Made by a program: the position numbers and the translations under genes. Below, one piece after another: positions 2,562 through 61,682 of a stretch of 64,000 bases of DNA. The notes under the pieces are model-generated. The model saw nothing but the letters and a program-made list of their open reading frames with translations, searched no databases and was not told the DNA's origin. Source of the stretch: Bacteroidales bacterium Phil12 (lineage in GTDB: Bacteria > Bacteroidota > Bacteroidia > Bacteroidales > P3); NCBI GenBank assembly GCA_002633275.1, contig NWBO01000141.1, positions 21,635 to 85,634 of the forward strand. Reading direction: 5' to 3'. How positions within the stretch are numbered: position 1 is the stretch's first letter; each line of letters begins with the position of its first letter.

Positions 2562-2666
2562 AAAATTAGTTTCAGTAACTAAAAAATTAGTTTCACTAAT
2601 CAATTAATTGATATGGCTATTTAATTCTATGATTTGCGACATTATTTTTTCTATTCCTTTGTTTCG
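2562..2666. repeat. 21-base ladder repeat, site 1 (convergent gap)
   Basis: Five consecutive 21-base steps between the convergent glycosyltransferase and GIY-YIG genes. Two neighbouring units both begin AAAATTAGTTTCA; the next have TGATATGGCT and TGCGACATTAT, words seen again at 51.69 kb and 58.18 kb. Confidence 0.75.
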
Positions 2667-2672
2667 CATTTT

Positions 2673-3344
2673 TTACCTTACCTTATCGTGATTTTCATTT
2701 TCCTTTCTTAAATCATCAAGTATTTTGCCCTTATATGAAAAATATTTTGCTCCTTGATAGGCTCCGGATGTATTCTGTACATCTTCTGGCATAAATGTTC
2801 CAACGAAAGGCGACAACTTATATATACGTCCTTCATATTCGATGGTATCGTCCGATGCTACTTTTACGATTATACCGGTAGGAATGAAAGTAATGTCTTC
2901 TCCGATTTTTATGCCGCACATACTGAATTTGAAGCGAGAACGTTTAACTTCTCGTTTAATGCTGACAGGTTTTGTGTTGTCAATTGGTTTATTCTCATGA
3001 TATAAAATAACTTCCGCATCATCAACCGTCGTTGCAATATCGCGAAAAATATCAAGAGCCACTTGCGGGGCGACATTAAAAAATTCGCGATTTTGGCGAA
3101 TACGCAAGTCTGTTAAACGATCTATTGTCTTATGTACTAATTTTTCGACCTCGTTATATTTGCAAGTTTTCATAGTCGCAAATATCTCAAAAGGTAAAGG
3201 TACGGCAGTATTGTCAAGTTCCTTTGACCTAATATCTACGGGGCGAGAACTTTTGCCAATCTTTACCCAATCCTCTTTGAAACTGGGATTGGTAAGTATA
3301 TACACATATCCTTTCTCCACGATTTTTGCTATTGTTTTTGCCAA
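2673..3344 (-). CDS. GIY-YIG nuclease family protein (T5orf172/MUG113-like)
   Basis: A small predicted nuclease-fold protein. The GIY-YIG core sits at residues 12-100: GYVYILTNPSF supplies the first strand, VKIGKS the second 'YIG' strand, then a conserved Arg (DIRSKEL) and a Glu in NEVEKLVH that would bind metal. This spacing is that of the T5orf172/MUG113 subgroup rather than UvrC or homing nucleases. The remaining 110 residues have no domain I recognise and are rich in Lys, Ile and Asp, ending in a charged tail. No methylase, integrase or other partner is adjacent, so its role (DNA repair, defence or other) is open. A very strong hairpin lies just upstream of the start. Confidence 0.75.
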   Translation of the reverse strand: MAKTIAKIVEKGYVYILTNPSFKEDWVKIGKSSRPVDIRSKELDNTAVPLPFEIFATMKTCKYNEVEKLVHKTIDRLTDLRIRQNREFFNVAPQVALDIFRDIATTVDDAEVILYHENKPIDNTKPVSIKREVKRSRFKFSMCGIKIGEDITFIPTGIIVKVASDDTIEYEGRIYKLSPFVGTFMPEDVQNTSGAYQGAKYFSYKGKILDDLRKENENHDKVR

Positions 3345-3367
3345 ATTGAAACTACTTTTATTACAAT

Positions 3368-3415
3368 TTAACGATTAACGGCGAGCATCGTCAAATGCTC
3401 GCCGTCAATCGTTAA
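3368..3415 (-). terminator. Near-perfect 21-bp hairpin between two minus-strand genes
   Basis: Arms at 3368-3388 and 3395-3415 pair over 21 positions with one mismatch, around a six-base loop. It begins 11 bases after the stop of the T9SS gene (3426-4148) and ends 24 bases before the GIY-YIG start, so it most likely ends or stabilises the upstream transcript. No strong U-tract follows. Confidence 0.7.
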
Positions 3416-3425
3416 AAGCAATGAT

Positions 3426-4248: not shown

Positions 4249-5094
4249 TTATTCAATATCAATCTCATTTACCTGCAATACTTCACCGTTATCGGCGTTA
4301 GTAGCGAATACGACTATCTTGCAGTTGGCTGTATTCCAAGAAGAATTTATATTAATCTCATAGTTTTTGTTGATATTTTGATTTGCGCTTGCGGAAGCGA
4401 AAAATGAATAATCAACAAGACCATTGGTTCTTAAAACATGGTTGAATACATAGTCTTTAACCATAGGATTGTTTGCATCGTTGGTCAGTTGAGTACCTAT
4501 TATACCATCTTCCAAGACCAAAATAGTTATTAACACCGGTTGATTAATGTCTTGTAATATTTCACCATTCACACTGACTAAAAATTTATTATCTCTTTTC
4601 GTTGCACCAAGATTAATATTCATTGTGTGCTTTGTTGAAGAAAGTAAAGAAACAATAGTCGAACGCCAATCATCTTTTAGTACTCCTTTTGAGGAACTTG
4701 TACTGTTGTTCTTACGATTTATAACGCCGATAGGGTTGCTTGTTATTCCAAAATCGTTATACCATTTCTCGCCGTATTCAGTACGGAAATCCATATTGCC
4801 ATTGGCTGAACTCGGTCTTGCAAAAGCACCTGCATGAACAGCCATAGCAACCAACTTTTCGCCAAATTCATTCTGTAAATCAGTTACAAGTTCTGCTGCC
4901 GCAGGACAATTGACACAACTCCAACCGGTGTAATCCTCTAAAAGTATTGCTTGTTCGTTTTGCTTTTTTGTTATAGGCGTTTGCTCGGAAGTTTCACCTT
5001 CGGGATAGATAACATATTCGTTTTCTTCAAAATTATCACAAGCCACAAACATTAACGGCAGCATTGCCAATGTTATATATTTCAAAATTTTCAT
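4249..5094 (-). CDS. Omp28-related outer-membrane lipoprotein
   Basis: Exported lipoprotein: the N-terminus ends in a lipobox (LMFVAC, lipidated Cys near residue 19). An Omp28-type thioredoxin-like domain follows, with a CxxC pair in GWSCVNCPAAAELV (about residues 58-71) and the family stretch VAMAVHAGAFA. Omp28 proteins are surface lipoproteins of Porphyromonas and relatives; the CxxC suggests redox activity but this is not established. It is the third gene of a likely operon (TlpA, DUF6029, Omp28), with about 60-base gaps. Length 281 is normal. Function in the cell is unknown. Confidence 0.8.
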   Translation of the reverse strand: MKILKYITLAMLPLMFVACDNFEENEYVIYPEGETSEQTPITKKQNEQAILLEDYTGWSCVNCPAAAELVTDLQNEFGEKLVAMAVHAGAFARPSSANGNMDFRTEYGEKWYNDFGITSNPIGVINRKNNSTSSSKGVLKDDWRSTIVSLLSSTKHTMNINLGATKRDNKFLVSVNGEILQDINQPVLITILVLEDGIIGTQLTNDANNPMVKDYVFNHVLRTNGLVDYSFFASASANQNINKNYEININSSWNTANCKIVVFATNADNGEVLQVNEIDIE

Positions 5095-8517: not shown

Positions 8518-8601
8518 TTCAAGTGTTATCGTTTTTTTAGTGTTAAACACTATTTTGATAGATACTCATAATATTTTAGTTGTATGAGAAACGTTTTATT
8601 T
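8518..8601. repeat. 21-base ladder repeat, site 2 (3' of adenine deaminase)
   Basis: Four 21-base steps that end exactly at the adenine deaminase stop codon. A TTTT tract recurs once per unit, and the second unit holds the dyad AGTGTTAAACACT. Confidence 0.7.
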
Positions 8602-10257
8602 CTATGCAAATACAGACGTAAATTCAAATGACTTCGCATCAAACAAACCCTTATCGCTGAGTTTTATTTCGGGGATTACCAAAAGAGCCATAAACGCCAT
8701 AGTCATAAATGGTGCATTCATCTTGCAGCCCAATGATTTGGCAAAATTATTCAGACTTTCGTACTTGCTTGAAACAACATCTATTGTTTCGCCACTCATA
8801 AGTCCTGCAATAGGTAGTGGCAGACTTTCTGTTTTTTCTCCATTTGTGATACATATACCACCTTTGTTTGCAACGAGTTGATTGATAACTTTAACAATAA
8901 GTTCATCACATGTTCCAACAGCAATTATATTGTGAGAATCGTGTGCTATCGTAGAAGCCATTGCCCCATTCTTTAATCCGAAACCATTAATGAATGCAAT
9001 GGCAGGCTTTGTATTATTGTACCTGTTACATACCACTAATTTCAAGACATCGTTTTCAGTGTCGGATACCACGAAATTATCTTGGATTTTGGCATTGCAA
9101 ACAATAGCTTTTGTATATAATTCCTTGTCTTTGGCTTTAATTACTTTGATTGCAGATGTTTGAGCAATTAATTTAATATCTTTTTCAGTGATTTCGCTTC
9201 TATTGAAATTGTTAATAATATTCGTATTATCGCTAAGTAAATCGTTGCAAACAAGGTTATTATTTGCTTTATCGAAGACTTGTTCGCCTGAAATGAAAGT
9301 GGATTGTATTTCAAAGTCTTTTAGATTATTTACAATGATAAAGTCTGCATAGTCGCCTTTTCTGAGCATTCCGATTGGTAAATTGTAATGAGAGATTGGA
9401 TTTAACGAACTTGTTTGCAGTATATTGAATAAAGATACTCCTTTTCCGATACTTCTCTTTACGAGTGTGTCAATATAAGAATTTTGAAGTTCGTTCGGGT
9501 GAATGTCATCACTGCAAAACATAGTCATTGTAGGGTATTTGTCAATCAGTTGCCATAGATTATCAAAGTTTTTTGCGGCACTGCCTTCACGAATCAAGCA
9601 CTTTATTCCATATTTTATTTTAGTCTCCGCTTCATCGTATGAAGAACTTTCATGGTCTGTGGAAATGCCTGCAAGCGAGTATGCTAAAATATCTTTGTCG
9701 TCTAACATCGGAGCATGGCCGTCAGTAGGTTTTCCGACTTGTTTGGCGTAGTCGATTTTTCTTAGCACTTCCTCGTTTTTGTTCAATACACCTGGGAAAT
9801 TCATCATCTCTGCAAGAGAATATATTTCCTTTTTCTCTAATAATTGTTTGACATCTTGGCTATTCAATGTGTAGCCCGAAGTCTCGAAACTCGTTGCCGG
9901 AACGCAGGAAGGAGCCGTGAAAGCAAAGTGAAAACACGATTGCTTGCTGTTTTCAATCATAAAATTTACACCTTGCTTGCCGCACACGTTTGCTATCTCG
10001 TGAGGATCGCACACAGCACCCACGACGCCGTGTCGTACAGCCTCTTTTGCATATTGAGAGGGCAAGAGCATAGAACTTTCAATATGAACATGGGCATCAA
10101 TCAAACCGGGAAGAATATATGGTGCGTTGTTATCAAGGTCGGGTATTGGAATAATATCCTCAATTTTACCATTCTTAACGTGCAACTCTCCATCTATAAC
10201 TGTTTTGTCTGCAACGGATAAGATATGTCCTTTTACTACGAAATTATTGTTTAACAT
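8602..10257 (-). CDS. ade: Adenine deaminase
   Basis: Hydrolyses adenine to hypoxanthine and ammonia in purine salvage. It belongs to the amidohydrolase superfamily: the metal-binding PGLIDAHVHIESSML stretch, KPTDGHAPML, STDHESS, and the family C-terminus ending IPEIKLSDKGLFD all fit bacterial Ade (not the adenosine deaminase-like type). I place the start at 10257 (MLNNNFVVKG): the reading frame stays open upstream only because it runs through 21-base ladder units, and those residues are not family-like. That gives 551 residues, near the family's usual size. Ladder repeats flank the gene on both sides. Confidence 0.93.
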   Translation of the reverse strand: MLNNNFVVKGHILSVADKTVIDGELHVKNGKIEDIIPIPDLDNNAPYILPGLIDAHVHIESSMLLPSQYAKEAVRHGVVGAVCDPHEIANVCGKQGVNFMIENSKQSCFHFAFTAPSCVPATSFETSGYTLNSQDVKQLLEKKEIYSLAEMMNFPGVLNKNEEVLRKIDYAKQVGKPTDGHAPMLDDKDILAYSLAGISTDHESSSYDEAETKIKYGIKCLIREGSAAKNFDNLWQLIDKYPTMTMFCSDDIHPNELQNSYIDTLVKRSIGKGVSLFNILQTSSLNPISHYNLPIGMLRKGDYADFIIVNNLKDFEIQSTFISGEQVFDKANNNLVCNDLLSDNTNIINNFNRSEITEKDIKLIAQTSAIKVIKAKDKELYTKAIVCNAKIQDNFVVSDTENDVLKLVVCNRYNNTKPAIAFINGFGLKNGAMASTIAHDSHNIIAVGTCDELIVKVINQLVANKGGICITNGEKTESLPLPIAGLMSGETIDVVSSKYESLNNFAKSLGCKMNAPFMTMAFMALLVIPEIKLSDKGLFDAKSFEFTSVFA

Positions 10258-10263
10258 TATTAA

Positions 10264-10347
10264 AATAGTTATGGAGATTAATTTATCAGTGTCCATAACT
10301 ATTTTACTGATTATGGACACTATTTTATCGGTGAAAGAGACTGTTTA
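10264..10347. repeat. 21-base ladder repeat, site 3 (3' of universal stress gene)
   Basis: Four 21-base steps. Neighbouring units are reverse complements: AGTGTCCATAA (10288-10298) and TTATGGACACT (10311-10321) form an 11-bp stem with a 12-base loop. TTTT recurs every 21 bases. The last unit includes the stop codon of the stress-protein gene. Confidence 0.8.
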
Positions 10348-11199
10348 TAGGAATACAGCATTCATTCCCGATTTCTTTAACGGCACGCAAATAACAGGTA
10401 CTTTTGCATAGCGGACAACATCTTGGGCTCTTGGGTCAGCGGCAAAATCCGTAGTAATATCCCTACCCATAACGATGCACATATCCACACCGTTTGTCTC
10501 ATTATTCATAAATTTTATTGATTCATCTGCGAAATCCTTACTTTGTGCAAGCATAGGCATTTTCACAACATTGCATTCCACACCTTTTGAAAGTATGAAA
10601 TTTTCTGCTTTTGAAGCAGTGTATTCCAAATGTAATTTTTGGTCGCTTTCTATTCCGTCCCAAGAGCCTATTAGTATGGTGATTCTCGCTCCATATTCTT
10701 TTGCCAATTTTATTGCAGTCGGAACTTTTTGTCTCGAAGAAAGATTTAATTCAAGAGGCAAAAGAATATTTCTTATAGGTTTCGGTTCAATATTGACAGC
10801 AACCGTCATCAAAGGTATTTCAGCCGTGCGAATAAGTTTATGCGTGTTTGCTCCAATTGTATTCAAACCGGTATTGGAAGTACCAACGACAAGCAAATCA
10901 ATCTTATTTTCTCTTATGAAATTGTTAATCTCACCCGTGATACGTCCTCTGCGAATGTAGGCTGTAACATCCAATCCGTACAGAGTTTTGATATTTTTCT
11001 GCAATTCGGAGAAATGCAGCCTTTGAACATCTTCCGAAACTTCTTGTTGTCCCAAAAGTTTGCCGAAAAAACCAACCTCTTCACTGACGTGTAACAATGA
11101 ATAATTGGTATCAGAATCTTTGAATAAGAATTTACAGAATTTCAAACAAGCATTCAAACTTAAATCGTTGAAATCTGTCGTTATCAAAATATTTCTCAT
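10345..11199 (-). CDS. Universal stress protein, tandem UspA domains
   Basis: Two Usp domains in one chain: residues 1-140 (start RNILITTDFNDLS; ending with VVGTSNTGLN) and about 145-284 (start IRNILLPLELN; ending MGRDI and VPVICVP). Usp proteins bind ATP or other nucleotides and help survival under stress, with no single defined reaction. The ATP-binding G-x2-G-x9-G(S/T) signature is only partly kept in domain 1 and weak in domain 2. It is a monocistronic gene between glutaminase and adenine deaminase. Length is normal for the double-domain form found in Bacteroidota. Confidence 0.88.
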   Translation of the reverse strand: MRNILITTDFNDLSLNACLKFCKFLFKDSDTNYSLLHVSEEVGFFGKLLGQQEVSEDVQRLHFSELQKNIKTLYGLDVTAYIRRGRITGEINNFIRENKIDLLVVGTSNTGLNTIGANTHKLIRTAEIPLMTVAVNIEPKPIRNILLPLELNLSSRQKVPTAIKLAKEYGARITILIGSWDGIESDQKLHLEYTASKAENFILSKGVECNVVKMPMLAQSKDFADESIKFMNNETNGVDMCIVMGRDITTDFAADPRAQDVVRYAKVPVICVPLKKSGMNAVFL

Positions 11200-11331
11200 T
11201 TTATTTTAATTTTTATTATCTTTTGAAATTGTTTGTTCGCAAGAATAAATTACTATCATTAATGTATATGTATAAATTATTATGCAGAACTATTGTTTAT
11301 TCTGTATTCGAACAGTGTTTATTGTAAAATA

Positions 11332-12246
11332 TCAGAAAATAGATTCTTTTGTTTCAGTCGTTAATAGTTCCAAAAATTTCATACCTACAACCGAATTGCC
11401 TTTTTCATTTAAGCGTGGCGAGAATACTGTTACCGCATATCTTTGCGGATATATGGCAGAAATTCCCCCACCTACGCCGCTTTTTCCGGGCAGACCCACC
11501 AAATAGGAAAAGTCTCCCGATTCATCGTAAAAACCACATGTAAGCATTATTGCATTTATTCGTTTGACTTGTGAAGCCGTTAAATGAACGTTTGCATAAT
11601 TAAACTCTTTTTTGTGGTCTGCAAAGCAAATGAATGCCTTTGATAATTCTTTGCAATTCATTTCTATGCTACACATCAATAAATAAAATTGTAATACATG
11701 TTCTATATCGTTTTCTATATTGTGATAATATTTCAGCATATTGGTTATTGCCGCATTCAAATAGCCACAACTTCTTTCCGAACGGGCAACAGAAAAATTG
11801 TAATTGACCGTTTCGCTTTGCGATATGCAACGTACAAAATCAAGAAAATCACTCTCGGGATTTGGTAAGTGAGAAAGAAGGATGTCTGCCACTACAATCG
11901 CTCCTGCATTGATAAACGGATTACGTGGAATGCCATGTTCAAGTTCCAATTGAACCAAAGAATTAAACGCACTGCCCGAAGGCTCTTTTCCCATACGATT
12001 CCATAATTTATCTCCCTCCAAAGCAAAAGCCATTGCGAATGAAAAAACTTTTGAAATACTTTGAATGGAAAATCTTGTGTCTGCTTTGCCACATTGATAC
12101 TGATCTCCATTAAGTGTTTGCAGACAAACGCCTATTTGGTCGGGATTTACCTTTTCCAGCGCAGGTATATAATCTGCTTGCTTGCCAATTTGACTATATT
12201 GTTGTACTTTCTCGTAAATGTTTTCTATGATTTGTTGATAGTCCAT
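11332..12246 (-). CDS. glsA: Glutaminase A
   Basis: Hydrolyses L-glutamine to glutamate and ammonia. It has the beta-lactamase-like serine hydrolase fold: the nucleophile Ser and general base Lys are in FSIQSISKVFSFAMA (SxxK), and the family motifs EPSGSAFNS, NPFINAGAI, RSCGYLNAA and the GKSGVGGGI loop are all intact. Length 304 is exactly the family norm. It is separated from the upstream stress gene by about 130 bases with no clear promoter match. In enteric bacteria glsA aids acid tolerance through ammonia release; whether this applies here is inference. Confidence 0.95.
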   Translation of the reverse strand: MDYQQIIENIYEKVQQYSQIGKQADYIPALEKVNPDQIGVCLQTLNGDQYQCGKADTRFSIQSISKVFSFAMAFALEGDKLWNRMGKEPSGSAFNSLVQLELEHGIPRNPFINAGAIVVADILLSHLPNPESDFLDFVRCISQSETVNYNFSVARSERSCGYLNAAITNMLKYYHNIENDIEHVLQFYLLMCSIEMNCKELSKAFICFADHKKEFNYANVHLTASQVKRINAIMLTCGFYDESGDFSYLVGLPGKSGVGGGISAIYPQRYAVTVFSPRLNEKGNSVVGMKFLELLTTETKESIF

Positions 12247-18205: not shown

Positions 18206-18385
18206 CAAAAAAAACATATCATAAAAAGCAAACTTATTAAAATATTGTTGTTTTAGGGATATTTGTAAGAATTTTGTGGAGTTAATATTCATTAGACTGA
18301 TAAATGACAGTGATTGTACGATTTTTGACAACAATTTTTGTTTTCTTACAATAAAGAGGGAGAAAATAGAGTTTATAAATAGTTT

Positions 18386-19113: not shown

Positions 19114-20649
19114 ATGCGTAAGACCATACAAATTACACTGACTCCCGAAGATTATTACGACAAAAATACTTTTGAAAACATTATTGCAAAAAAGAGCGGA
19201 ATAAATAGCAAGTACTTGTCTTATATGATTAACAAGGAAAGTTTAGATGCTCGTAAAATGCCGGTGTATCATTTGGAAATTATAACCTCGTCTGATAACG
19301 ATTTGCCAAATATTAATCCCGAGCCATTTTTGAATGTAAGCAATTCAATGCCTGTTGTTGTGGTGGGAGCAGGTCCTTGTGGGCTTATGGCAGCATTGAA
19401 ACTTATTCAAAAAGGATTAAAACCTATAATCATAGAACGAGGTTCGGCGGTAGAGAAACGTAAAAAAGATGTTGCTTTGATTGTTAGGAACGAAGCCCTT
19501 AATGAAGAAAGCAATTTTTGTTTTGGAGAGGGCGGAGCAGGTACTTTTTCTGACGGCAAGTTATATACACGCAGTAGCAAAAAAGGTAATATCGAAGAAG
19601 TTTTGCAACTGTTTGTTTATTTCGGTGCAAACAAACAAATACTCTATCAATCACATCCGCATATAGGTACAGATGTCTTATCCCGAGTTGTTAAAAACAT
19701 AAGAGAGAAAATACTGCAATGCGGCGGAGAATATAGATTCGATACCAAGGTTGTGGATTTTATTGTAAAAAATGATGAGGTTATCGGAGTAGTTACTGCA
19801 AATGGCGAAGAGATTTTAGCAAACAAAGTGATTTTGGCAACAGGGCATTCGGCAAGTGGTATATACCAATTATTCTATGATAGAAATTGGCATATAGAAG
19901 CCAAACCTTTTGCAATGGGTGTAAGAGTTGAGCATCCGCAAGAAATGATAAACGCTAACCAATATCATAACAAAAAATATTCAACACTACTTCCTCCTGC
20001 CGAATATTCATTGACAACAAACAATGAGGGCAGGGGTGTGTTTTCTTTTTGTATGTGTCCGGGAGGAGTGGTTGTTCCAACACCGGATAAAGAAGGTATA
20101 ATGGTAGTTAATGGAATGTCTTCTTCCACAAGAGGCGGCAGGTTTGCAAATAGTGCGATAGTGGTTACGGTAAATGAGGAAGACGCACAAGAGTTTAGTG
20201 ATTTTGGAGCGTTGTCTTTATTGAAATTTCAGCAGCAATGGGAAAAAAATATGTATTTCGACAGAAGAATATGCCCGGCACAAAGGCTAAGCGATTTTGT
20301 AAATAACAAAGTTTCTTCGTCTTTATCGGAAAGTTCGTATAGGCCTTCTCTTGTCGCTTGTGATATGAAAGAAAGATTGCCAAAAGTTGTAAGCAAAAAT
20401 TTGCAGTTAGGTTTTGCTGTTTTTGATAGAAAGATAAAAGGATTTATTACAGACCAAGCCAATATTATAGGATTGGAGAGCAGAACGTCTTCCCCTGTTC
20501 GTATTCCAAGAGATAAGGAAACGATGCAGCATACAACTCTAAAAAATCTTTATCCTTGCGGAGAGGGGGCAGGTTATGCGGGAGGAATAACGTCTTCTGC
20601 CATAGACGGAATAAATGCAGCGAAAAAGATAGCCGAAGCATTGGCGTAA
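19114..20649 (+). CDS. FAD-dependent oxidoreductase, uncharacterised (COG2509-like)
   Basis: A cytoplasmic flavoprotein. I start at 19114 (MRKTIQITLTPEDYYD), two bases after the previous stop; the frame upstream is only overlap with PorT. A small N-terminal domain (residues 1-80) precedes the dinucleotide-binding motif VVVVGAGPCGLMAALKL and the Glu binding ribose (IIIERG). Family motifs follow: FCFGEGGAGTFSDGKLYTR, the GHSASG motif, and the C-terminal FAD contact YPCGEGAGYAGGITSSAIDG. The substrate is unknown for this family. Length 511 is typical. Ladder repeats follow its stop codon. Confidence 0.85.
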   Translation: MRKTIQITLTPEDYYDKNTFENIIAKKSGINSKYLSYMINKESLDARKMPVYHLEIITSSDNDLPNINPEPFLNVSNSMPVVVVGAGPCGLMAALKLIQKGLKPIIIERGSAVEKRKKDVALIVRNEALNEESNFCFGEGGAGTFSDGKLYTRSSKKGNIEEVLQLFVYFGANKQILYQSHPHIGTDVLSRVVKNIREKILQCGGEYRFDTKVVDFIVKNDEVIGVVTANGEEILANKVILATGHSASGIYQLFYDRNWHIEAKPFAMGVRVEHPQEMINANQYHNKKYSTLLPPAEYSLTTNNEGRGVFSFCMCPGGVVVPTPDKEGIMVVNGMSSSTRGGRFANSAIVVTVNEEDAQEFSDFGALSLLKFQQQWEKNMYFDRRICPAQRLSDFVNNKVSSSLSESSYRPSLVACDMKERLPKVVSKNLQLGFAVFDRKIKGFITDQANIIGLESRTSSPVRIPRDKETMQHTTLKNLYPCGEGAGYAGGITSSAIDGINAAKKIAEALA

Positions 20650-20751
20650 ATAGTATGTGATACTACAAAATTGGTGTTAAACATTATCAAATTAGTGTTA
20701 AACATTGGTAAAATAATATTAAACATCAGTAAAACGATTAGTGGTACCGTT
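20650..20751. repeat. 21-base ladder repeat, site 4 (3' of FAD enzyme)
   Basis: Four clean units from 20668: three share the pattern AAA, AT-rich triplet, GTGTTAAACAT; the fourth changes to CGATTAGTGGTACC. The stretch before (20650-20667) holds the small dyad AGTATGTGATACT. The rest of this 312-base gap up to mltD holds a -7 box and no gene. Confidence 0.8.
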
Positions 20752-20901
20752 ATTGTACTATGTTTTAATAATATTTTATATTCTCTTTATTGCTGCTTTT
20801 GTAATATATGAGTGGTTATTTAACTTGTGAAAGATATTGCAGAACCATGCTTGTTTTGAATAATTATTTTGTAGAACTCACGTGGTTTGAAAAAAATGTT
20901 G

Positions 20902-20909
20902 TAATTTTG
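20902..20909 (+). promoter_or_regulatory. -7 promoter element for mltD
   Basis: TAATTTTG about 52 bases before the mltD start; a TTTG at 20886-20889 is closer than the ideal spacing, so only the -7 box is convincing. Confidence 0.45.
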
Positions 20910-20961
20910 ACAACCTTAAATCCCCTCTGAGGTTGGGGTAACAAATAAATCAGACATAAAT

Positions 20962-22620: not shown

Positions 22621-22645
22621 TAACAAACAAGTCAGACTTACTAAG

Positions 22646-24007: not shown

Positions 24008-24034
24008 ATAAATACATAAATATATCAACGAGTT

Positions 24035-25526: not shown

Positions 25527-25673
25527 AAAATAATGTTTAACACTAAAAAATTAATCTCCCACATTAATAAATTAGTGTTAAACATTAAAAAATTAGTTTC
25601 TCATACTGTAAAACCGATTAAATGACTGTGAAAAACCATAAAAGACGCCGAAAAATCATTAAAAGGCAAAAAA
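25527..25673. repeat. 21-base ladder repeat, site 5 (between membrane protein and pyrH)
   Basis: Seven 21-base steps, each starting with AAA(A). Units 1 and 3 are inverted: AATGTTTAACACTAA (25532-25546) pairs perfectly with TTAGTGTTAAACATT (25572-25586), a 15-bp stem. The array runs up to the pyrH promoter box. Confidence 0.85.
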
Positions 25674-28250: not shown

Positions 28251-28281
28251 TATTTGAATTTGTTCCGCTCCGCACTGCCAT

Positions 28282-28617
28282 TAATATATAATGATGTACT
28301 GTTAATATATAATGATGTACTGTTCCTCCCATTGTCTTTAATTTTTATTCAAAACACCCCATTTTTTTATCCGCTACACCCCATTTAGAGTTTCAAATAC
28401 GCAGGTTTGTGTTCCAAACACGGTAGTTTTCGTTCCAAACAGTCTGATACGTGATGTATATAGTACTATATAGCGACTATATATAGTACTATATAGTAAC
28501 CATATATAGTACTATCTGCGTCACGTATTAGCCTGTTTGGAACGAAAACCTGCGTGTTTGGAACGAGAACTACCGTTTTTGGAATATAAACCTGCGTATT
28601 TTTATTAAAAACTGCCG
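28282..28617. repeat. Gapless 16-unit 21-base ladder with a giant dyad
   Basis: Sixteen consecutive 21-base units without indels fill the gap between the convergent dipeptidase and beta-lactamase genes. The first two are identical. The array is also a large imperfect inverted repeat: the left arm from about 28395 (AATACGCAGGTTT, then TTCCAAACACGGTAGTTT) reappears inverted in the right arm ending at about 28603, with one extra unit on the right. The centre (28455-28515) is AT-rich with TAGTACTATATA repeated three times. Confidence 0.9.
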
Positions 28618-28622
28618 GTTTG

Positions 28623-28659
28623 AAAAAAAAAAGAATCCGCCGATGGTTCTACCGACGGA
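28623..28659 (-). terminator. Intrinsic terminator of the beta-lactamase gene
   Basis: Read on the minus strand, TCCGTCG and CGGCGGA pair over seven positions (one G-T) and are followed within a few bases by a run of ten T. Confidence 0.8.
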
Positions 28660-34064: not shown

Positions 34065-34190
34065 TTATAAGGTCTGTCAAACTAAAAAATAATATCAATA
34101 ACCAATAAAATAATCTCAATGATTAGTAAATTAGTTTCACTAATCATTTTACTGATGTTTAAAACTAATTTTGCGATAACAATTATTAAT
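34065..34190. repeat. 21-base ladder repeat, site 6 (between divergent queA and ackA)
   Basis: Six 21-base steps; successive units start AAAATAAT, AAAATAATCTC, AAATTAGTTTC, then switch to TT-starting units. GATTAGT and ACTAATC in neighbouring units form a small stem. This is one of the few ladders not at a 3' gene end. The rest of this 441-base gap holds the queA leader and the ackA promoter. Confidence 0.75.
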
Positions 34191-34271
34191 TTTCTGCGAA
34201 TGTATTAGTGGTTTGTGGCGAGTATCGAGAACTCTGTTTTGCGGTAAAAGAGAGAAAAATAAAATAAAGGC

Positions 34272-39398: not shown

Positions 39399-39424
39399 GT
39401 AAAATTAAAAAATTAGTTTATATC

Positions 39425-39709: not shown

Positions 39710-39738
39710 TCCTTCTTTTGTTATTAATGTTTAATTAC

Positions 39739-39766
39739 AAATGGTAGTCTGATTAGACTACCATTT
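39739..39766. terminator. Perfect 12-bp hairpin before the SF0329-like gene
   Basis: AAATGGTAGTCT and AGACTACCATTT pair perfectly around the loop GATT. No T-tract follows on either strand, so it may be a terminator of the broken DUF6150 gene or an operator for the next gene, whose ATG is 22 bases further. Confidence 0.6.
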
Positions 39767-39787
39767 GGTGTTTAATAATAACACAAT

Positions 39788-40204
39788 ATGGTACATCGTT
39801 GGAGTAAGCTTAAAAGAGCATTGCAGTTGATAATAGACCCTACTACCGAATTTCAGATTCGTTGCAACGCATACAACATAGGTGAAAGTATACCAATACC
39901 TCGGTACTGGATTACTATTGGCAAAACTATCGTATGGGATTTTCCTAAAAATTTTATGGACGATACATCAGGGTGGTATTTTTTCGATGAAGTGCAGAAA
40001 CTGTCATGTTTGATAAGGGAATATGTTGATTGCCCCAAAGACGAGTTAATGATGCATCATTTTGATGATAGATGGAGAATCATTCCATATATAATGGCAT
40101 GTGACAGACGCATCGGCAAACGCCGTCTGAGAACTATGCTTGACAATACCAAAAATCAGGACATACGAGAAATTATTCAGAAGCGATTGATATCAAAAGA
40201 ATGA
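39788..40204 (+). CDS. SF0329-like small protein, function unknown
   Basis: A 138-residue cytoplasmic protein. It opens with HRWSKLKRALQLIIDP, the Trp-Ser-Lys-Leu-Lys start seen in SF0329-type proteins, followed by a beta-rich part (RYWITIGKTIVWDFPKN) and a helical C-terminus with basic residues (DRRIGKRRLRTML). The family name comes from memory and the match beyond the start is loose. Small proteins of this sort sometimes act as immunity proteins, but there is no toxin gene adjacent. Preceded by a strong 12-bp hairpin. Confidence 0.5.
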   Translation: MVHRWSKLKRALQLIIDPTTEFQIRCNAYNIGESIPIPRYWITIGKTIVWDFPKNFMDDTSGWYFFDEVQKLSCLIREYVDCPKDELMMHHFDDRWRIIPYIMACDRRIGKRRLRTMLDNTKNQDIREIIQKRLISKE

Positions 40205-45015: not shown

Positions 45016-45540
45016 AATATAGTCCAATTTGTATTTGCCGAAGCCGAGTTTTTGTTTTCTGTTCTCTAATTTTTGTTTGGCGGAGGCGAAAAACGTGTTG
45101 AAAGCAGGCTGATTTGTGCGTGATACAGCCGTACTTTTTTCCAAGTCAGCCTGACAAATTTCCAAGTCAGCCTGAAACGTCCATCAAAGTTGCGCAACTT
45201 TGATGCACTTGTTGGGCTGACTTGGAAAAGTATAGGGCTGAGTTGAACGAGAGTCGGGCTGTTTTTAATTGAAAACTTCAAACCGCAAAACACAAACTTC
45301 AAACGGCAGAATTAAAATTTGAAAGCATAAAATAAAAAATTCAAGGGAATAAATAAGAAATGGGCGTTGTTGAATTAAAAGTTAAGAGCGTAAAGTGAAA
45401 AATTCAAACCATTGATTGAAGAACTCAAACCAAAGATTGAAAATTTCAAAGCATAAAATAAAAAATTCAGTATAAAGATTGAGAAATTGAAAATGTTGAA
45501 TGAAAAAGTAAGATTAAAAATTATGGAGTTAAGGTGTCGA
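45016..45540. repeat. Large gapless 21-base ladder (about 25 units) between prfB and comEC
   Basis: Unbroken 21-base steps over 525 bases, running over the comEC stop codon. Rows align in columns, for example CCAAGTCAGCCTGA twice, GGGCTGA/GTTG, then ten AT-rich rows around GAAAAATTCAAA. A central 22-base perfect palindrome (45183-45204, core TTGCGCAA) is flanked by CCAAGTCAGCC (45162-45172) and its inverse GGCTGACTTGG (45215-45225). A related array lies inverted at 63.64-64.00 kb. The part of the gap before 45016 holds only the prfB terminator and AT-rich DNA. Confidence 0.9.
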
Positions 45541-47806: not shown

Positions 47807-47835
47807 GTATCGTTTTTTGTTGTTTAATAAAAAAT

Positions 47836-47877
47836 AAATAATGTTAAACGTCCGTCAAATAGTGTGAGACTATATTT
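47836..47877. repeat. 21-base ladder repeat, site 7 (3' of rnc)
   Basis: Two units starting AAATAATGTTAAACG and AAATAGTGTGAGAC. The shortest intergenic site. Confidence 0.55.
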
Positions 47878-47921
47878 TATTGTTTAGCCTTATCGTTATT
47901 CGCAAGTTGGGAAGTCTATGT

Positions 47922-51592: not shown

Positions 51593-51718
51593 AAATAGTG
51601 TCCCCAACTAATAAAATAATTAGGGACACTGTTTTATTAATCTCAATGATTAGCAAAATAGTGTTAAACATTGTTAAAGTGATTAGTGATATGGCTAAAA
51701 TCACTTCAATTTCGTAAG
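51593..51718. repeat. 21-base ladder repeat, site 8 (3' of PurN-GuaD)
   Basis: Six 21-base steps. GTGTCCC and GGGACAC in the first two units are inverted. The words AGTGTTAAACATT, TCTCAATGATTAG and TGATATGGCT recur from sites 1, 4, 5 and 6. Confidence 0.8.
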
Positions 51719-56218: not shown

Positions 56219-58069
56219 ATGAGTATAAATAAAAATATAAAGAACATTAACGACAACATCAAGGAGTTTAACACAAATATCTCCAACATCGTTAAAAGCA
56301 AACTCCCTTTGCAACTGCAATACATTCTAAGTGTATATTTCTTGGGATTATTCTTTATGTTGCTTTACCGATTTGCAGGTTACGCCATTCATTGCTTTGT
56401 ATCTTTTTCGGATATCAATCCTATCTTGCTTTTGAGAAGTCTTTTGGTGGGCATTCGTTTTGATTCCATTGTTTTGTGTTGGATTCTCGCCGTATTCCTG
56501 ATAGCAATGGCAGTAGGTGCGATATTTAACATCAACAAGAAATGGTTTTATCGTTCGTTGCATATACTTATCTGTTTTGTGTTTATTATTGTCTATTGTT
56601 TGATAGCAATAGATTTGGCTTACTTTACATATTTCAAAAGCCATATCAATATAATCGTTTTATCTTGGGTTCAATCTCCTGCATACATTAGTTCCATTAT
56701 CGTACGACACCCGGTTGTTTTATTATACTTTGCTATCTTTATGATTTCTCTTGCGTGGTATATTTGGCTGATGTATTGTCTTTACAATGCAACTCTATTC
56801 AAAGTCATTCCGCCGTTTGTTCAAGAAAGAAAACTGTCCAAAACCATTCTTGTGTCCGTACTTTTGTTTGCTTTGTGCGGACTTGGTATGTACGGCAGGA
56901 TAACAGAGAGGAAGCCTTTGGGAGTTTCTTCTGCTGCTTTTTGCGATAGCAATTTCTTTAATCAATTAGCCGTAAGCCCGCTGTTTAATTTGGAGAAAAG
57001 TATCGAAGAAGAAGTTTTCCAAAACATTCCTCCGCTTACGGTCATAGACGGAGGTACAACACGAGAAACAGTTAAACAGCAGATGATTTCTCAAACCGAT
57101 ATACCGTCTTCAACAATCGCTTTGCCAAAATCGACAAGCATTGTAATGGTGCTTATGGAAGACATAACGCTCAGTGATGTAAATAGCAAGCAGATGCCGT
57201 ATCTTTCTTCTTTAACCGACAACGCTTTGTCCTTTACCAATGTTTATCCCGACGGCGAGAATATTTATAATGGAGTGTTCTCCACTCTGTTCGCCTATCC
57301 TAATATTCTTTCGGCTAATTCCATGAACTCCGTTATCACTGCCAAATTCTCCGGACTGCCTAACGTTCTCAAAGAAAAGACATACAAAACCCTGTTCATC
57401 ACAAGACAACAAAAGAACGGCAACGATATGATACGTTTTCTTTATCGCAACGATTTCGACGATGTTATTGCCGAGACGAATATCACCGCCGAAGATGAGG
57501 TTGAAGAAATATCCAAACTTACCGACACATTCCTTTCTTGTATCTTGGTTAGCAACAATTCACAAGACCAACATATCAAAAATACCGACAATCACATCAA
57601 AAAACTTATAAATTCCGCAAAACAAACAGCGTGGTTCAAATCCACCGTTTTTGTTTTCGTAGGTTGCAACGGTAAGGATAAAATTCCGTTTATCGTATAT
57701 ATGCCAAGCGTTATCAAATATTCAACCAACGACAACCTTGCCTGCCAAACCGATATTGCCCCTACAATCCTTGCAATGGCAGACAAATCATACCTGAACG
57801 AAAACACTTTGGGCTTAAACATTTTCGGCGGTCAGCGAACCTACGCCATTTCGTCTTATCCTCATTATGCAGTTGCACAAGACAGCGTTTGGAAATATGT
57901 TTGGAGGGACTCGGGACACGAAAGCCTTTACTATCGCGGCAGCGACAAGGAAAACAAAAACTATATCAAAGCCTACTCGCAGCAAGCCGAGAATATGAAA
58001 ACTTATCTTTTCTCCATGCTTCAATACACTCAATACTCTATTTCGCAAATGAAATTGACAAGAAAATAA
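56219..58069 (+). CDS. LTA-synthase/sulfatase-like membrane protein with degenerate active site
   Basis: A 616-residue protein with five N-terminal membrane spans (about residues 37-230) and an extracytoplasmic alkaline-phosphatase-superfamily domain, as in lipoteichoic acid synthases and phosphoethanolamine transferases. The first metal ligand Glu is kept (VLMEDI, E314), but the nucleophilic Thr expected after the Gly-x at 346-348 is Asn (DGENIY), and the metal-binding Asp-His of the usual ADHG is replaced (FVGCNG, 481-485). The fold is otherwise intact (KIPFIVYMPS, QTDIAPTILAM). So it may be a pseudoenzyme or use other residues. Six bases after the ABC exporter. Confidence 0.78.
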   Translation: MSINKNIKNINDNIKEFNTNISNIVKSKLPLQLQYILSVYFLGLFFMLLYRFAGYAIHCFVSFSDINPILLLRSLLVGIRFDSIVLCWILAVFLIAMAVGAIFNINKKWFYRSLHILICFVFIIVYCLIAIDLAYFTYFKSHINIIVLSWVQSPAYISSIIVRHPVVLLYFAIFMISLAWYIWLMYCLYNATLFKVIPPFVQERKLSKTILVSVLLFALCGLGMYGRITERKPLGVSSAAFCDSNFFNQLAVSPLFNLEKSIEEEVFQNIPPLTVIDGGTTRETVKQQMISQTDIPSSTIALPKSTSIVMVLMEDITLSDVNSKQMPYLSSLTDNALSFTNVYPDGENIYNGVFSTLFAYPNILSANSMNSVITAKFSGLPNVLKEKTYKTLFITRQQKNGNDMIRFLYRNDFDDVIAETNITAEDEVEEISKLTDTFLSCILVSNNSQDQHIKNTDNHIKKLINSAKQTAWFKSTVFVFVGCNGKDKIPFIVYMPSVIKYSTNDNLACQTDIAPTILAMADKSYLNENTLGLNIFGGQRTYAISSYPHYAVAQDSVWKYVWRDSGHESLYYRGSDKENKNYIKAYSQQAENMKTYLFSMLQYTQYSISQMKLTRK

Positions 58070-58193
58070 ATTTTTATTACAAACCACTTTATTGATGTTT
58101 AACATTAATAAAATAATCATTAACACTAACAAAACAGTGTTAATGATTATTTTTTTGGTTTCATTGATTATTTCACTAATATGCGACACTTGT
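58068..58193. repeat. 21-base ladder repeat, site 9 (3' of LTA-synthase-like gene)
   Basis: Six 21-base steps. AATAATCATTAACACT (58112-58127) and AGTGTTAATGATTATT (58136-58151), in neighbouring units, form a perfect 16-bp stem with an eight-base loop. It includes the 17-base word shared with waaA. Confidence 0.88.
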
Positions 58194-58327
58194 TTTTCGG
58201 ATTGCAATTAGGCTGTGTCGTTTCTGTTTTAGGTTATATTTTCCTCTACCGTGAAAAAGACAATGAAAAGATTCCACTTACTATAATGAAAAGCCCAGAT
58301 TTTTATTATAAAAAAAGATATGACTTT

Positions 58328-58359
58328 TTTGAAATTTGGAGAAATCAGTTGTAATTTTG
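58328..58359 (+). promoter_or_regulatory. Promoter pointing into the composite repeat
   Basis: TTTG (58328-58331), 20 bases, TAATTTTG (58352-58359). No ORF of note follows on this strand; the repeat block begins 24 bases after it. The stretch 58215-58327 shows nothing else. Confidence 0.5.
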
Positions 58360-58383
58360 AAAAGTCGGCTTCGGAGATGTAAA

Positions 58384-58735
58384 AAAGACTGACTTTTTAC
58401 CCTAAAAAGACAGTCTTTTTGGGGTAAAAAGTCAGTCTTTTTGAATAGTCCGCATCGATGTTTCCAAAATTACAAGCAGAGTTTCTGAAATTAGCAGCAA
58501 ATTTTCTGAAATCGGCAGCAGAAAAAAATATCTCCGCTGCTAATTTTTGAAACATAGGAATAGAAGGTACAAAAAAGCATACCTTTTTAGGGTAAAAAAG
58601 CATACCTTTTTGAGGTAAAAAAGCATGCTTTTTTGACTACTCCGCATCGATGTTTCCAAAATTACAAGCCAACTTTTTGAAATTAGCAGTTGAAAAAAAT
58701 AAATCCGCTGCCAATTTTTGAAAATTTTAATACAA
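58384..58735. repeat. Composite repeat: two copies of a 190-base block with 21- to 23-base units
   Basis: TCCGCATCGATGTTTCCAAA at 58449 and again at 58641 (192 bases apart) lies in two copies of the same block: near-palindromic units (AAAAAGACAGTCTTTTT, AAAAAGCATACCTTTTT) spaced 22-23 bases, then 21-base units around GAAATTAGCAGC, then CCGCTGC-AATTTTTGAAA. AAAAAAGCATGCTTTTTT (58617-58634) is a perfect 18-base palindrome. The region ends with A7-GAC-T9 at 58734-58752. Confidence 0.85.
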
Positions 58736-58861
58736 AAAAAGACTTTTTTTTTGCAGTTATTTACTCAAAAAGGTCTTTTCATTATTTTTTAATTGCTTCA
58801 TCAAGTTTGAAAAACTCCGATAAAATCAATAAAATATATATACTTTTTGTTTTGCCTATCT

Positions 58862-59572: not shown

Positions 59573-59605
59573 AAAAAAGCCGACAGGTTGTATATCCCGT
59601 CGGCT
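59573..59605 (-). terminator. Intrinsic terminator of the large T9SS/Omp28 gene
   Basis: On the minus strand AGCCGAC (59599-59605) pairs with GTCGGCT (59578-59584), followed by a run of six T. It begins 21 bases after the stop codon. Confidence 0.85.
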
Positions 59606-59626
59606 AAATTTCAGATTAATGTGCTG

Positions 59627-61483
59627 TTATTTCGTAATGGAAAGTTTGTTTGTCGTAATTCCGTTATCGGTTACAACTCTTATGTAATACATTCCGTTTG
59701 CAAGATTTGAAGTGTTGATGTTTATTTGATTTTCACCGCTCTTCAAATTTTGTGTTCCCATATTCAAAACTTCTCTACCCATTAAATCCAATACGTTTAT
59801 TGTTGCAGCATCGGCATCATTAACACTTACGCTCAATGTTACCATATCTTTTGCAGGGTTAGGATAAACAACGGCTTGGAATATATTGCCGTCAGCTTCG
59901 TTCAAACCAACGATGTCTGAGATTTTGAAGTCTTTCTTTTCGCTTGCGCCCCAGTCGCCTTTGCTGTTATAAGTAAGGGTTTTGCCGTCAGCATCTACAA
60001 CAAGGTATCTGCCATTTGTTGCACCGTCGCCGCCTTCGTCTTTGATTTCAAATGTGTAGCAACCAGGAGTGTTTATTCTCCACAACTGAATGGTATCTCT
60101 TACGGTCGTACCGTTGGAGTAGTTACCGCCTTGGTCTATAACGTCTCCGTTGTCATTATATACGAACCAGGAAATTTCTGATGCTTTGTTGTCCGTTCTT
60201 AAAATCAAATGAGGAGCACCCTTACCTTCATTGATTTTAGGTTTAGAGAATGTAGCGGTCTTAGGATTGTTGTCTTCGTATGGTTGTCCGTTAAGTTCGG
60301 TTATGCCTACTTCTATTGTGGATGTTGCACCGGTAAGAGTGATTATAGGCTCATCGAAAGCAATCTTAGGAGAATTTTGGAAAGAACCGATACCTTCTGT
60401 TGTAGTCCAAGTATAAGTTTTAACGTCGTTTGTTGCTGTATTTGTATATTGGAACGTAACACTTGTCAAAGCATCGCCTGCATCGTTGTGGAAAGAAACA
60501 AAAACTTTTGATAAGTCTTTGCAGCCAAATTCTTGTTCAAAAGCAACGCTTTTTACGGAAGCACCCAAACCTGTAACATTTGTATATTCAGGTTCAACTT
60601 TTATACCTGTATAGATATTAGGAGCCTTTACTTTGGCGTTAGCCGATTGTCCTTCTGTCAAGAACACTGCCAATTCAAATTCGCCCAATGCTGCTTCTAC
60701 ATTAGTGTTGCTACCATAACTATAATCTTTGTAAGAAGCAGGAATATCGTAAGTATATTCTTTTTCAACAAATGTTCCGGCAGGAATTACGCCGCTTTCG
60801 TTTGCAGTTGCAATAGCTTCACCCCATGTTCCGGTAATCATCTCTCTTAACATATGCATATGACGATACCTTGTCATATTACCACTGCTTGAAATAATAT
60901 ATTCCGAATTATAGTTGCCATAGTTAGCTTGGTCTCCTTCTACATTGTTTTGCAGAAGAACAACATTCAAACGGTTTTCATCTGCCGTAACATCGGAAGT
61001 GTAATAAACTTCAACTTTGACAGTCATTTTTCTTGTTGTTGCGTCTATTGAAGCCTTGGCAGCAACATTGACAGGAGAATTTTGATTTAAGATTTGATTG
61101 GCAGAACCTGTCCAGCCTGTACTCGAAGGCCCTACATTTTCAATAAGAGCGGTTGCACTCGACCCCATTCTGTTTAATGTTCCGGCAGGATAGCCGCCGA
61201 TATTACGTTGTGAAGCAAGAGCATCGCCATATTGAGTTGTGAAATTAGGCTTATATCCGCTTGCATAACCTCCTTGATGGATGTTTATCGCAACGACTCT
61301 GCCTTCATGCTGGTTTGCGTAAGATTGAACGTTTTGATGTCCGAGAGGACAATAACCGCAGCCGATTCCGGTGTATTCCTCAATAACCACATTACGCTTT
61401 TGTACTTCTGTACTTACGATTGTTTGGGCAAATGTTCCATATCCAAGAACCAAACTTGCCACGGCAAATAATACTTTTTTCAT
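59627..61483 (-). CDS. Secreted Omp28-related protein with T9SS tail
   Basis: A 618-residue secreted protein: signal peptide (ending LGYGTFAQ), Omp28/thioredoxin-like domain with EEYTGIGCGYCPLGHQNVQ (CxxC near residues 42-45) and VVAINIHQGGYASG, beta-rich Ig-like middle, a domain with calcium-binding-like turns (NDNGDVIDQGGNYSNG, KDEGGDGATNG), and a T9SS tail (VYPNPAKDMVTLSV ... TTNKLSITK). It is a larger, surface-exported relative of the lipoprotein at 4.2 kb. Role unknown; adhesion, redox or nutrient binding are possible. Has its own promoter and terminator. Confidence 0.88.
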   Translation of the reverse strand: MKKVLFAVASLVLGYGTFAQTIVSTEVQKRNVVIEEYTGIGCGYCPLGHQNVQSYANQHEGRVVAINIHQGGYASGYKPNFTTQYGDALASQRNIGGYPAGTLNRMGSSATALIENVGPSSTGWTGSANQILNQNSPVNVAAKASIDATTRKMTVKVEVYYTSDVTADENRLNVVLLQNNVEGDQANYGNYNSEYIISSSGNMTRYRHMHMLREMITGTWGEAIATANESGVIPAGTFVEKEYTYDIPASYKDYSYGSNTNVEAALGEFELAVFLTEGQSANAKVKAPNIYTGIKVEPEYTNVTGLGASVKSVAFEQEFGCKDLSKVFVSFHNDAGDALTSVTFQYTNTATNDVKTYTWTTTEGIGSFQNSPKIAFDEPIITLTGATSTIEVGITELNGQPYEDNNPKTATFSKPKINEGKGAPHLILRTDNKASEISWFVYNDNGDVIDQGGNYSNGTTVRDTIQLWRINTPGCYTFEIKDEGGDGATNGRYLVVDADGKTLTYNSKGDWGASEKKDFKISDIVGLNEADGNIFQAVVYPNPAKDMVTLSVSVNDADAATINVLDLMGREVLNMGTQNLKSGENQININTSNLANGMYYIRVVTDNGITTNKLSITK

Positions 61484-61546
61484 AGTGTTTATTAATTTTA
61501 ATGTTATTATATCGTTATTTAACTATATTTTCAACGATTTCGGCGG

Positions 61547-61578
61547 CAAAGTTAAGAATTAATATCTAATCTGCCAAA
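61547..61578 (-). promoter_or_regulatory. Bacteroidota-type promoter for the large T9SS/Omp28 gene
   Basis: TTTG (61575-61578), 20 bases, TAACTTTG (61547-61554) on the minus strand. The -33 box touches the first unit of the ladder. Confidence 0.7.
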
Positions 61579-61682
61579 AAATATTGCCTGTTTTTAACAA
61601 ATTGGTGTTTAATATTGGTAAATTAGTGTTTAACATTAACAAATCAGTGTTAAATATTAAAAATTTCTTGTTTAATACTGTT
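61578..61682. repeat. 21-base ladder repeat, site 10 (overlapping the dxs 3' end)
   Basis: Five 21-base steps. Three share AAAT-(TGG/TAG/CAG)-TGTT(T/A)AA-ATT; the fourth (TTGTTTAATACTGTT) still matches and lies inside dxs, encoding its last residues. The dxs stop codon (61650-61652) falls within the third unit. Confidence 0.8.

What the first reader, a model, noticed from the sequence alone, without database searches (positions are those of the whole stretch)
2562..61682. A dispersed intergenic repeat class built on an exact 21-base step
At least ten gaps (2562-2666, 8518-8601, 10264-10347, 20668-20751, 25527-25673, 34065-34190, 47836-47877, 51593-51718, 58068-58193, 61578-61682) carry short arrays in which an A- or T-tract returns every 21 bases and the 17 bases between are drawn from a small set of words: AGTGTTAAACATT, AGTTTCACTAATC, TCTCAATGATTAG, TGTCCATAAC, TGATATGGCT, TGCGACA. 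Sequence differs between sites and between neighbouring units, but the step does not. Seen directly: the step, the words and the positions. Inference: one family with a function or a copying mechanism. I recall no named family with this design; REP/BIME elements are the nearest idea but have no such constant step.
Basis: seen in the sequence. Interest (0 to 1): 0.88.

Follow-up and report, generated by a model that had tools for sequence, protein, structure and literature searches.

The report
Intergenic arrays with two-turn step
Between the genes of this Bacteroidales bacterium and of several relatives lie short rows of mirror-symmetric DNA words that return every 21 (sometimes 22) bases, about two turns of the helix, and the words differ between species while the step stays; they are likely rows of docking sites for a DNA-binding protein, which has not been identified.

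Summary
In the window, intergenic lag-21 identity is 0.3815 against 0.2963 (sd 0.0051) in 200 dinucleotide shuffles; coding DNA shows only a small excess. A 21-column model finds 168 arrays (658 units) in 796 kb of this genome and no array of three or more units in 326 kb of outgroup DNA. The unit is a 15-bp pseudo-palindrome, TARTn7AYTA, plus a 6-nt A/T linker. Against a 95%-identical relative, 6 of 25 indels of >=6 bp in arrays are exactly 21, 42 or 63 bp; the columns 2 and 4 bases either side of the dyad change in 9 of 432 cells against 150 of 1836 elsewhere, which suggests purifying selection. Other species and genera of the family have arrays with different words at step 21 or 22 (55 loci; 20 and 23: 3; 19 and 24: 0). 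So it is a class of repeats defined by step, not by sequence. Arrays tend to lie near gene 3' ends, before the next promoter, and occur in convergent gaps. Best reading: rows of sites for a dimeric DNA-binding protein on one helix face. The binder is unknown; HU-HIG proteins are a weak, phylogeny-confounded candidate. REP/RAYT, LytTR and known RNA families were tested and rejected.

The parts
2564..2647 (.). array, 4 units (TTCAGTA TTCACTA ATGGCTA TTGCGAC); the relative G005 has two 21-bp insertions here
8535..8597 (.). array, 3 units; G005 is 42 bp longer
10242..10346 (.). array, 5 units, with the inverted pair GTCCATA/TATGGAC; overlaps the GTG-start end of an ORF call
20648..20752 (.). array, 5 units (ATGTGAT GTTAAAC GTTAAAC ATTAAAC TAGTGGT)
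25528..25611 (.). array, 4 units by the model; lag-21 signal runs on to about 25703
34087..34191 (.). array, 5 units, several words
47815..47898 (.). array, 4 units by the model, the middle two clear
51593..51697 (.). array, 5 units, with GTCCCCA and TAGGGAC side by side
58069..58194 (.). array, 6 units, with adjacent inverted CATTAAC/GTTAATG
61579..61683 (.). array, 5 units; overlaps the TTG-start end of an ORF call
28254..28638 (.). 21-step stretches with a different word set (TGTTTGGAACGAAAACCTGCG and others)
45102..45524 (.). 21-step array with another word set (CCAAGTCAGCCTGA; AAACTTCAAACCGCA)
58436..58547 (.). 21-step array with another word set (AAATTAGCAGCAAATTTTCTG); by eye the pattern runs from about 58330 to 58760
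63663..63921 (.). 21-step array sharing pieces with 45137-45420: one inverted (81%), one direct (91%)

Best explanation
Intergenic DNA of this genome and of relatives in several genera carries tandem arrays of dyad-symmetric units repeating every 21 (in some arrays 22) bp, and these are likely rows of binding sites for a dimeric DNA-binding protein that would line up on one face of the helix. Shown: the step, the dyad frame TARTn7AYTA with A/T linkers, the set of inner 7-mers, whole-unit differences between close relatives, slow change at positions +-2 and +-4 from the dyad, and the tendency to lie near a gene's 3' end before the next promoter. Inferred: that a protein reads the units; that two helical turns between centres is why the step is 21-22; that positions +-2, where A and T are interchangeable, are read in the minor groove; and that the bound array covers or insulates the DNA between transcription units (arrays also occur in convergent gaps, where no promoter is expected). 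Also inferred: arrays spread and change by loss, gain and copying of whole units, so that the words drift apart between species while the step is kept. The binder is unknown; HU-HIG proteins (Pfam PF18291), many in this genome and found in the same genera as the arrays, are a weak prediction (my probability about 0.2).
For: Lag-21 signal about 17 sd above shuffles. 168 arrays/658 units in 796 kb; 0 arrays of >=3 units in 326 kb of outgroup DNA against about 183 per Mb here. Inner 7-mers far above independent columns, e.g. GTGAGTG 12 seen/0.17 expected, TTCACTA 7/0.12 among 365 units. G000 against G005 (95% identity), 108 units: columns 6, 8, 12, 14 differ in 9 of 432 cells, the other 17 columns in 150 of 1836; with G005 as the detecting genome 9 of 420 against 138 of 1785; frame columns 3, 4, 16, 17 differ in 37 of 432, so selection of matching units alone does not explain it. 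Of 25 indels >=6 bp in array blocks, 4 are 21, 1 is 42, 1 is 63 bp; outside, of 13 indels >=6 bp none is 21 and one is 42. In other members of the family, among 172 intergenic loci with a dominant repeat lag, 34 are at 21 and 21 at 22; lags 19, 20, 23, 24 have 0, 1, 2, 0. Dyad symmetry in 133 arrays of 10 other species (>=3 units, >=15% GC), no symmetric model imposed: mean z 2.03, 65 above 2. Columns 8/12 are TT or AA in 265 of 658 units, so they do not simply base-pair. Gaps of 100-600 bp with an array of >=3 units: tandem 55/153, convergent 19/45, divergent 13/44; in tandem gaps 38 of 55 arrays lie nearer the 3' end; of 38 promoter-like TAnnTTTG motifs in tandem gaps with one array, 29 lie beyond the array, 4 before, 5 inside. 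HU-HIG at E<=1e-14 in 40 of 81 family genomes, absent from most or all members of other genera; fresh 4-kb stretches: clear arrays in 4 of 8 HU-HIG+ genomes plus 1 weak, a lag-22 repeat in 1 of 8 HU-HIG-.
Against: No binder has been shown. Overall divergence inside arrays (6.45%) equals that of other intergenic DNA (6.46%). 19 of 25 indels in array blocks are not multiples of 21; some are one indel split by the aligner (window 8513: 32 + 10), others lie in poorly aligned blocks, and three large blocks were left out. The G000 frame was symmetrised in the model, so its own dyad score is biased. Columns 9/11 prefer CC and GG, which is not dyad-symmetric. Some relatives mix 21 and 22 (pairs at 42 and 43 in G010). 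No clear signal in same-genus G004, G007, G011, in samples of 17-65 kb. Adjacent units are more alike than chance (48 pairs against 26.6, sd 4.4), as local duplication would give. The HU-HIG link is confounded by phylogeny: Spearman 0.60, p 1.6e-4 over 35 genomes not treated as a tree; G081, G034, G061, G011 have HU-HIG and no pairs at 21/22/42/44 in the small sample; G010 has arrays with one strict HU-HIG hit; HU-HIG-negative G015 has a lag-22 repeat, and G017 and G018 have weak lag-21 repeats (4 and 9 pairs, none at 42); the fresh HU-HIG- stretches held far less intergenic DNA (2.9 against 7.2 kb). G047, of another family, has 12 HU-HIG matches and no such signal in 17 kb; it is not among the 35. 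G013 (14 matches, arrays present) had no row and is missing from the 35 too.
Confidence: 0.5

Rival explanations
1. Neutral repeat turnover: a 21-22-bp unit duplicates and deletes by slippage or unequal recombination, and words spread between arrays by gene conversion; no protein reads them.
For: Whole-unit indels between close relatives; adjacent units more alike than chance; overall divergence equal to other intergenic DNA; one locus in G024 is a row of about nine similar units.
Against: Neutral duplication gives no reason for 21-22 in unrelated word sets across genera, nor for slow change at four symmetric columns, nor for unlinked arrays sharing words while neighbours in one array differ.
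Confidence: 0.27
2. RNA-level elements: tandem hairpins acting as terminators or 3'-end stabilisers, made by inverted neighbouring units.
For: Arrays tend to sit near 3' ends; RNA folding z mean -2.96 over both strands of 113 arrays, and stems >=10 bp in 25 of 113 against 0 of 113 shuffled; adjacent inverted word pairs somewhat above chance (36 against 25.1, sd 4.3).
Against: Against arrays redrawn from the same pool of units the excess is modest (25 against 10-20 in 12 draws). Direct word pairs are more enriched than inverted ones (48 against 26.6). Divergent gaps have arrays too (13 of 44). A separate GC-rich terminator-like hairpin stands beside the array at 28217 (window 20001-40000 only). 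No Rfam match in a window array.
Confidence: 0.12
3. A mobile element of REP/BIME or MITE type moved by a transposase.
For: High copy number, intergenic, imperfect palindromes.
Against: No Y1/RAYT match in 9 of 9 array genomes searched; GTAG/CGTC tetramers are rare in arrays; in the aligned stretches I saw unit-level differences and no clean gain of a whole array, three large unaligned blocks left out.
Confidence: 0.05

Closest known systems
ArgR ARG boxes (E. coli): two 18-bp semi-palindromic boxes separated by 3 bp (PMC6640053, two passages seen)
   Same: Dyad sites with centres 21 bp apart (18 + 3), about two helical turns, for a symmetric protein
   Different: Two boxes at control regions, one motif; here 2-9 units in many gaps, also convergent ones, with many words that change between species
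AraC araI1-araI2 (recalled, no call)
   Same: 17-bp sites 21 bp apart on one face
   Different: Single operon, direct half-sites
REP/BIME with RAYT
   Same: Intergenic, palindromic, high copy
   Different: No RAYT found, no tag, constant step, species-specific words
TAACTGA intergenic repeats of Beggiatoaceae, Cyanobacteria and five Bacteroidetes (PMC4679880, passages seen)
   Same: Intergenic direct-repeat sets, 2-6 copies per set
   Different: One heptamer repeated; no 21-bp step, no word set
HU/IHF family, HU-HIG branch (PF18291)
   Same: Possible binders; HU and IHF read the minor groove (recalled)
   Different: No sequence-specific array binding shown here for HU-HIG

Membership tests
REP/BIME | RAYT/Y1 transposase in the genome | tested here: not met
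   PF01797: 0 of 9 array genomes incl. G000 at E<=0.001
REP/BIME | GTAG or CGTC tag at one end | tested here: not met
   GTAG/CTAC/CGTC/GACG 9/10/10/1 times in 13.8 kb of arrays with 658 units; no chance expectation computed
REP/BIME | Intergenic high-copy palindromic repeats | tested here: met
LytTR direct-repeat sites (21-bp step, recalled) | LytTR regulator encoded | tested here: not met
   0 matches at E<=0.001 in G000 and G005
ArgR boxes | Centre distance 21 bp of dyad sites | tested here: met
ArgR boxes | ARG-box consensus (TGAATn4ATTCA, recalled) | tested here: not met
   Frame found is TARTn7AYTA, by inspection; no ARG-box scan was run
CRISPR | Identical repeats with unique spacers | tested here: not met
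   Words vary between neighbouring units and are shared between unlinked arrays
Known RNA families | Rfam match in an array | tested here: not met
   At gathering thresholds only one tRNA and one DUF805b match in the window, neither in an array
HU-HIG binding arrays | HU-HIG protein binds the unit | not testable with these tools
   Only co-occurrence shown

The most novel reading that the evidence does not exclude
A bacterial chromatin-like addressing system: a family of paralogous dimeric proteins, perhaps HU-HIG, each reading its own half-word, coats intergenic DNA in rows locked to two helix turns; word sets and readers change together from species to species while the step stays fixed by the helix.
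Probability: 0.15. Interest if true: 0.95.

Novelty: categorically new. Interest (0 to 1): 0.8.

Why it matters
Repeat families are normally defined by sequence. Here the conserved thing is a distance of about two helix turns, kept across genera while the words are replaced. If the arrays are protein-bound, sites at (by extrapolation) hundreds of gaps per genome must have changed their words between related species, which makes co-evolution of a global DNA-binding protein with its sites directly testable. If they are neutral, a duplication process with a 21-22-bp ruler needs explaining.

Tried and rejected
LytTR regulators (recalled 21-bp direct repeats): no match in G000 and G005. REP/RAYT. 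RNA hairpins as the main cause. Known RNA families. Phage carriage: 17 viral contigs hold an exact 18-mer, 0 of 17 has a chain of >=3 units, so most likely chance. Translation: stop codons occur in the words, by inspection. Coding heptads as the source: coding excess is far smaller than the intergenic one. Arrays confined to promoters: not so, convergent gaps carry them. The reversed-sequence control of the unit model gave 35 chains on C53 (78 forward) and 4 in the window (16 forward); I judged it a poor control, because reversed arrays keep their period and A/T tracts, and used outgroup DNA instead. Of the 16 window calls of the model five are left out of the parts as doubtful: 4521-4583, 14784-14846 and 17455-17517, wholly inside ORF calls, 18274-18336, and the two-unit 38487-38528. 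For the binder only HU-HIG, LytTR and (as transposase) Y1 were searched; no further DNA-binding family was tested the same way. The paper on HU-HIG that I recalled is not held; the paper search for it listed four papers on other subjects. No structure prediction was run.
Full report
What was checked. In the window's intergenic DNA (40 segments, 7948 bases) the identity at lag 21 is 0.3815; 200 dinucleotide shuffles give 0.2963, sd 0.0051, maximum 0.3111. Other lags lie at 0.28-0.31, and 42 and 63 also stand out. On contig C53 of the same genome (395 kb) lag 21 gives 0.3515, lags 15-27 otherwise 0.304-0.315. Coding DNA has 0.2876 at 21 against 0.277-0.282 at multiples of 3 that are not multiples of 21; the outgroup pool has 0.2874 over 0.280-0.284, G013 0.2832 over 0.260-0.273. 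So a weak coding signal exists, partly general; why it is larger in G013 is open. The ten gaps have 0.38-0.67.

The unit. A model trained on the arrays (symmetrised) gives WAnTARTnWnWnWnAYTAnTW: a 15-bp pseudo-palindrome TARTn7AYTA and a 6-nt A/T linker. In 796 kb of this genome there are 168 arrays of 2-9 units, 658 units in all; 35 of the 168 lie more than half inside an ORF call; 112 of 270 gaps of >=100 bp carry one. The same model finds no array of >=3 units in 326 kb of outgroup DNA, and 17 in 380 kb of three sister species. Inner 7-mers come from a small set far above independent columns: of 365 units on C53 and the window, GTTAAAC 83, ATTAAAC 32, GTTAATG 17, GTGAGTG 12 (0.17 expected), TTCACTA 7 (0.12). 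The inner word looks modular: in 512 units other than GTTAAAC the strongest couplings are columns 9-11, 12-13 and 7-8, while 7 and 13 are nearly independent; columns 9/11 are mostly T-A, C-C or G-G.

Evolution over a short distance. G005 is 95.2% identical over 38 kb of the window, and further stretches of C53 and C101 align. In array blocks 6 of 25 indels of >=6 bp are exact multiples: 21 bp four times, 42 once, 63 once; some of the others are split or poorly aligned, and three large blocks were left out. Outside arrays, of 13 indels of >=6 bp none is 21 and one is 42. Gained or lost units are not always copies of their neighbours (window 8513: words GTTAATG and GTGAGAG beside GTTAAAC). Over 108 aligned units, columns 6, 8, 12 and 14 (T, W, W, A at +-4 and +-2) differ in 9 of 432 cells, all other columns in 150 of 1836; with detection in G005, 9 of 420 against 138 of 1785. 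The pooled Fisher p of 1.5e-11 counts most units twice. Columns 3, 4, 16 and 17, which also define the frame, differ in 37 of 432, so the choice of matching units alone does not explain the deficit. Array divergence as a whole (6.45%) is that of other intergenic DNA (6.46%); coding is 4.5%.

Evolution over longer distances. The word TTAGTGTTAAACATT (<=1 mismatch) occurs 207 times in G000 and 193 in G005, and 0-3 times in each of 59 other relatives. Yet the 21- or 22-base signal recurs in sister species with other words: G001 (TAATC...GATTA), G013 (TTTTCWGAAAA; also ACATATGT at step 22), G010 (AAAGACTTGRTTTT), G008, G012, G006, weaker in G003 and G009, and in other genera of the family: G014 (step 22), G016 (21 and 22), G022, G024. 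It was not clear in same-genus G004, G007 and G011, in samples of 17-65 kb; G002 gave almost no intergenic DNA. Pairs of words at 42 and 44 are frequent and at 43 rare, so the step seems uniform within an array, except in G010 and G003. Of 172 intergenic loci with a dominant repeat lag in other members of the family, 34 are at 21 and 21 at 22, against 0, 1, 2, 0 at 19, 20, 23, 24; 51 are at lag 51, a repeat of G012 by the per-genome counts. Of 10 such loci in 15 genomes of other families one is at 21. The ten named loci with a relative of one window protein are uncultured assemblies (one an Erysipelotrichales, 32% identity); five titles name deer or sheep gut. The nearest, RUG093, is 99% identical in that protein and has the same words; L051, L052, L053, L055 and L057 show a lag-21 excess with other words, L056 and L058-L060 do not. 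In 133 arrays of ten other species, with no symmetric model, dyad scores exceed column-permuted controls (mean z 2.03, 65 above 2).

Placing. In gaps of 100-600 bp, arrays of >=3 units occupy 55 of 153 tandem, 19 of 45 convergent and 13 of 44 divergent gaps; in tandem gaps 38 of 55 lie nearer the upstream gene's 3' end; of 38 TAnnTTTG promoter-like motifs (Bacteroidetes type, recalled) in tandem gaps with one array, 29 lie downstream of the array, 4 upstream, 5 inside.

Mechanism. Two turns between dyad centres, symmetric slow positions, tolerance of A or T at +-2, and use of unrelated words at nearly the same step all fit rows of a dimeric protein on one helix face. This is inferred. ArgR is a known case of the geometry: two 18-bp boxes 3 bp apart (PMC6640053, passages). 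The RNA rival is weakened because long stems are only modestly above arrays redrawn from the same units (25 of 113 against 10-20). Neutral turnover remains the main rival.

Candidate binder. LytTR has no match in G000 and G005. HU-HIG (PF18291) matches number 30 in G000, 16 in G005, 39 in G014, and 1-4 in 13 of 14 genomes of other families (12 in G047); at E<=1e-14 they occur in 40 of 81 genomes of the family, in genera g1, g2, g4, g10, g12 and in one g3 genome. The first five are the genera where I had seen clear arrays. In fresh 4-kb stretches, 4 of 8 carriers show clear arrays, 1 weak, 3 none; among 8 non-carriers one (G015) shows a lag-22 repeat, but the non-carrier sample holds only 2.9 kb of intergenic DNA against 7.2. 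Earlier stretches of non-carriers G017 and G018 held weak lag-21 repeats. Phylogeny is not controlled; G013, a carrier with arrays, and G047, a carrier without, are not among the 35 genomes of the rank test. C53 encodes three different HU-HIG paralogs of 134-136 aa side by side next to rplQ-rpoA-like genes (the rplQ and rpoA names are recalled from the sequences). I give HU-HIG about 0.2.

Novelty. Six paper searches for such arrays listed none; I saw listings only, capped at 10-20 rows, of open-licence papers. The nearest intergenic repeat in print that I met, TAACTGA (PMC4679880, passages), has a 7-nt unit. Filing it as categorically new is a judgement: the geometry has precedents (ArgR), the genome-wide class defined by step has none that I know.

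Noticed in passing
window 45137-45420 and 63684-63919: Two arrays with other word sets share pieces: 45209-45420 with 63874-63684 inverted (81%), 45137-45202 with 63854-63919 direct (91%)
   Followed up: partly
window 58415-58552 and 58606-58723: A gap holding a direct partial duplication (81-86%) of a 21-step region
   Followed up: no
L167 about 9500-12000 (G000:C101): Repeat of 66-base period, CRISPR-like in layout; a source of the lag 66/132 signal
   Followed up: no
L041 1807-3524 (G000:C53): Three different HU-HIG paralogs side by side; C14 hits have the same E-values and spacing, so perhaps a duplicate contig
   Followed up: partly
L082, L142-L145 (G012): Abundant 51-base repeat in G012 that swamps its autocorrelation
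   Followed up: no
coding DNA of G013 loci L083, L137-L141: Lag-21/42/63 excess in ORF interiors larger than in G000 or outgroups; unexplained
   Followed up: no
window 39366-39401: DUF805b cis-regulatory RNA match (Rfam RF02914)
   Followed up: no
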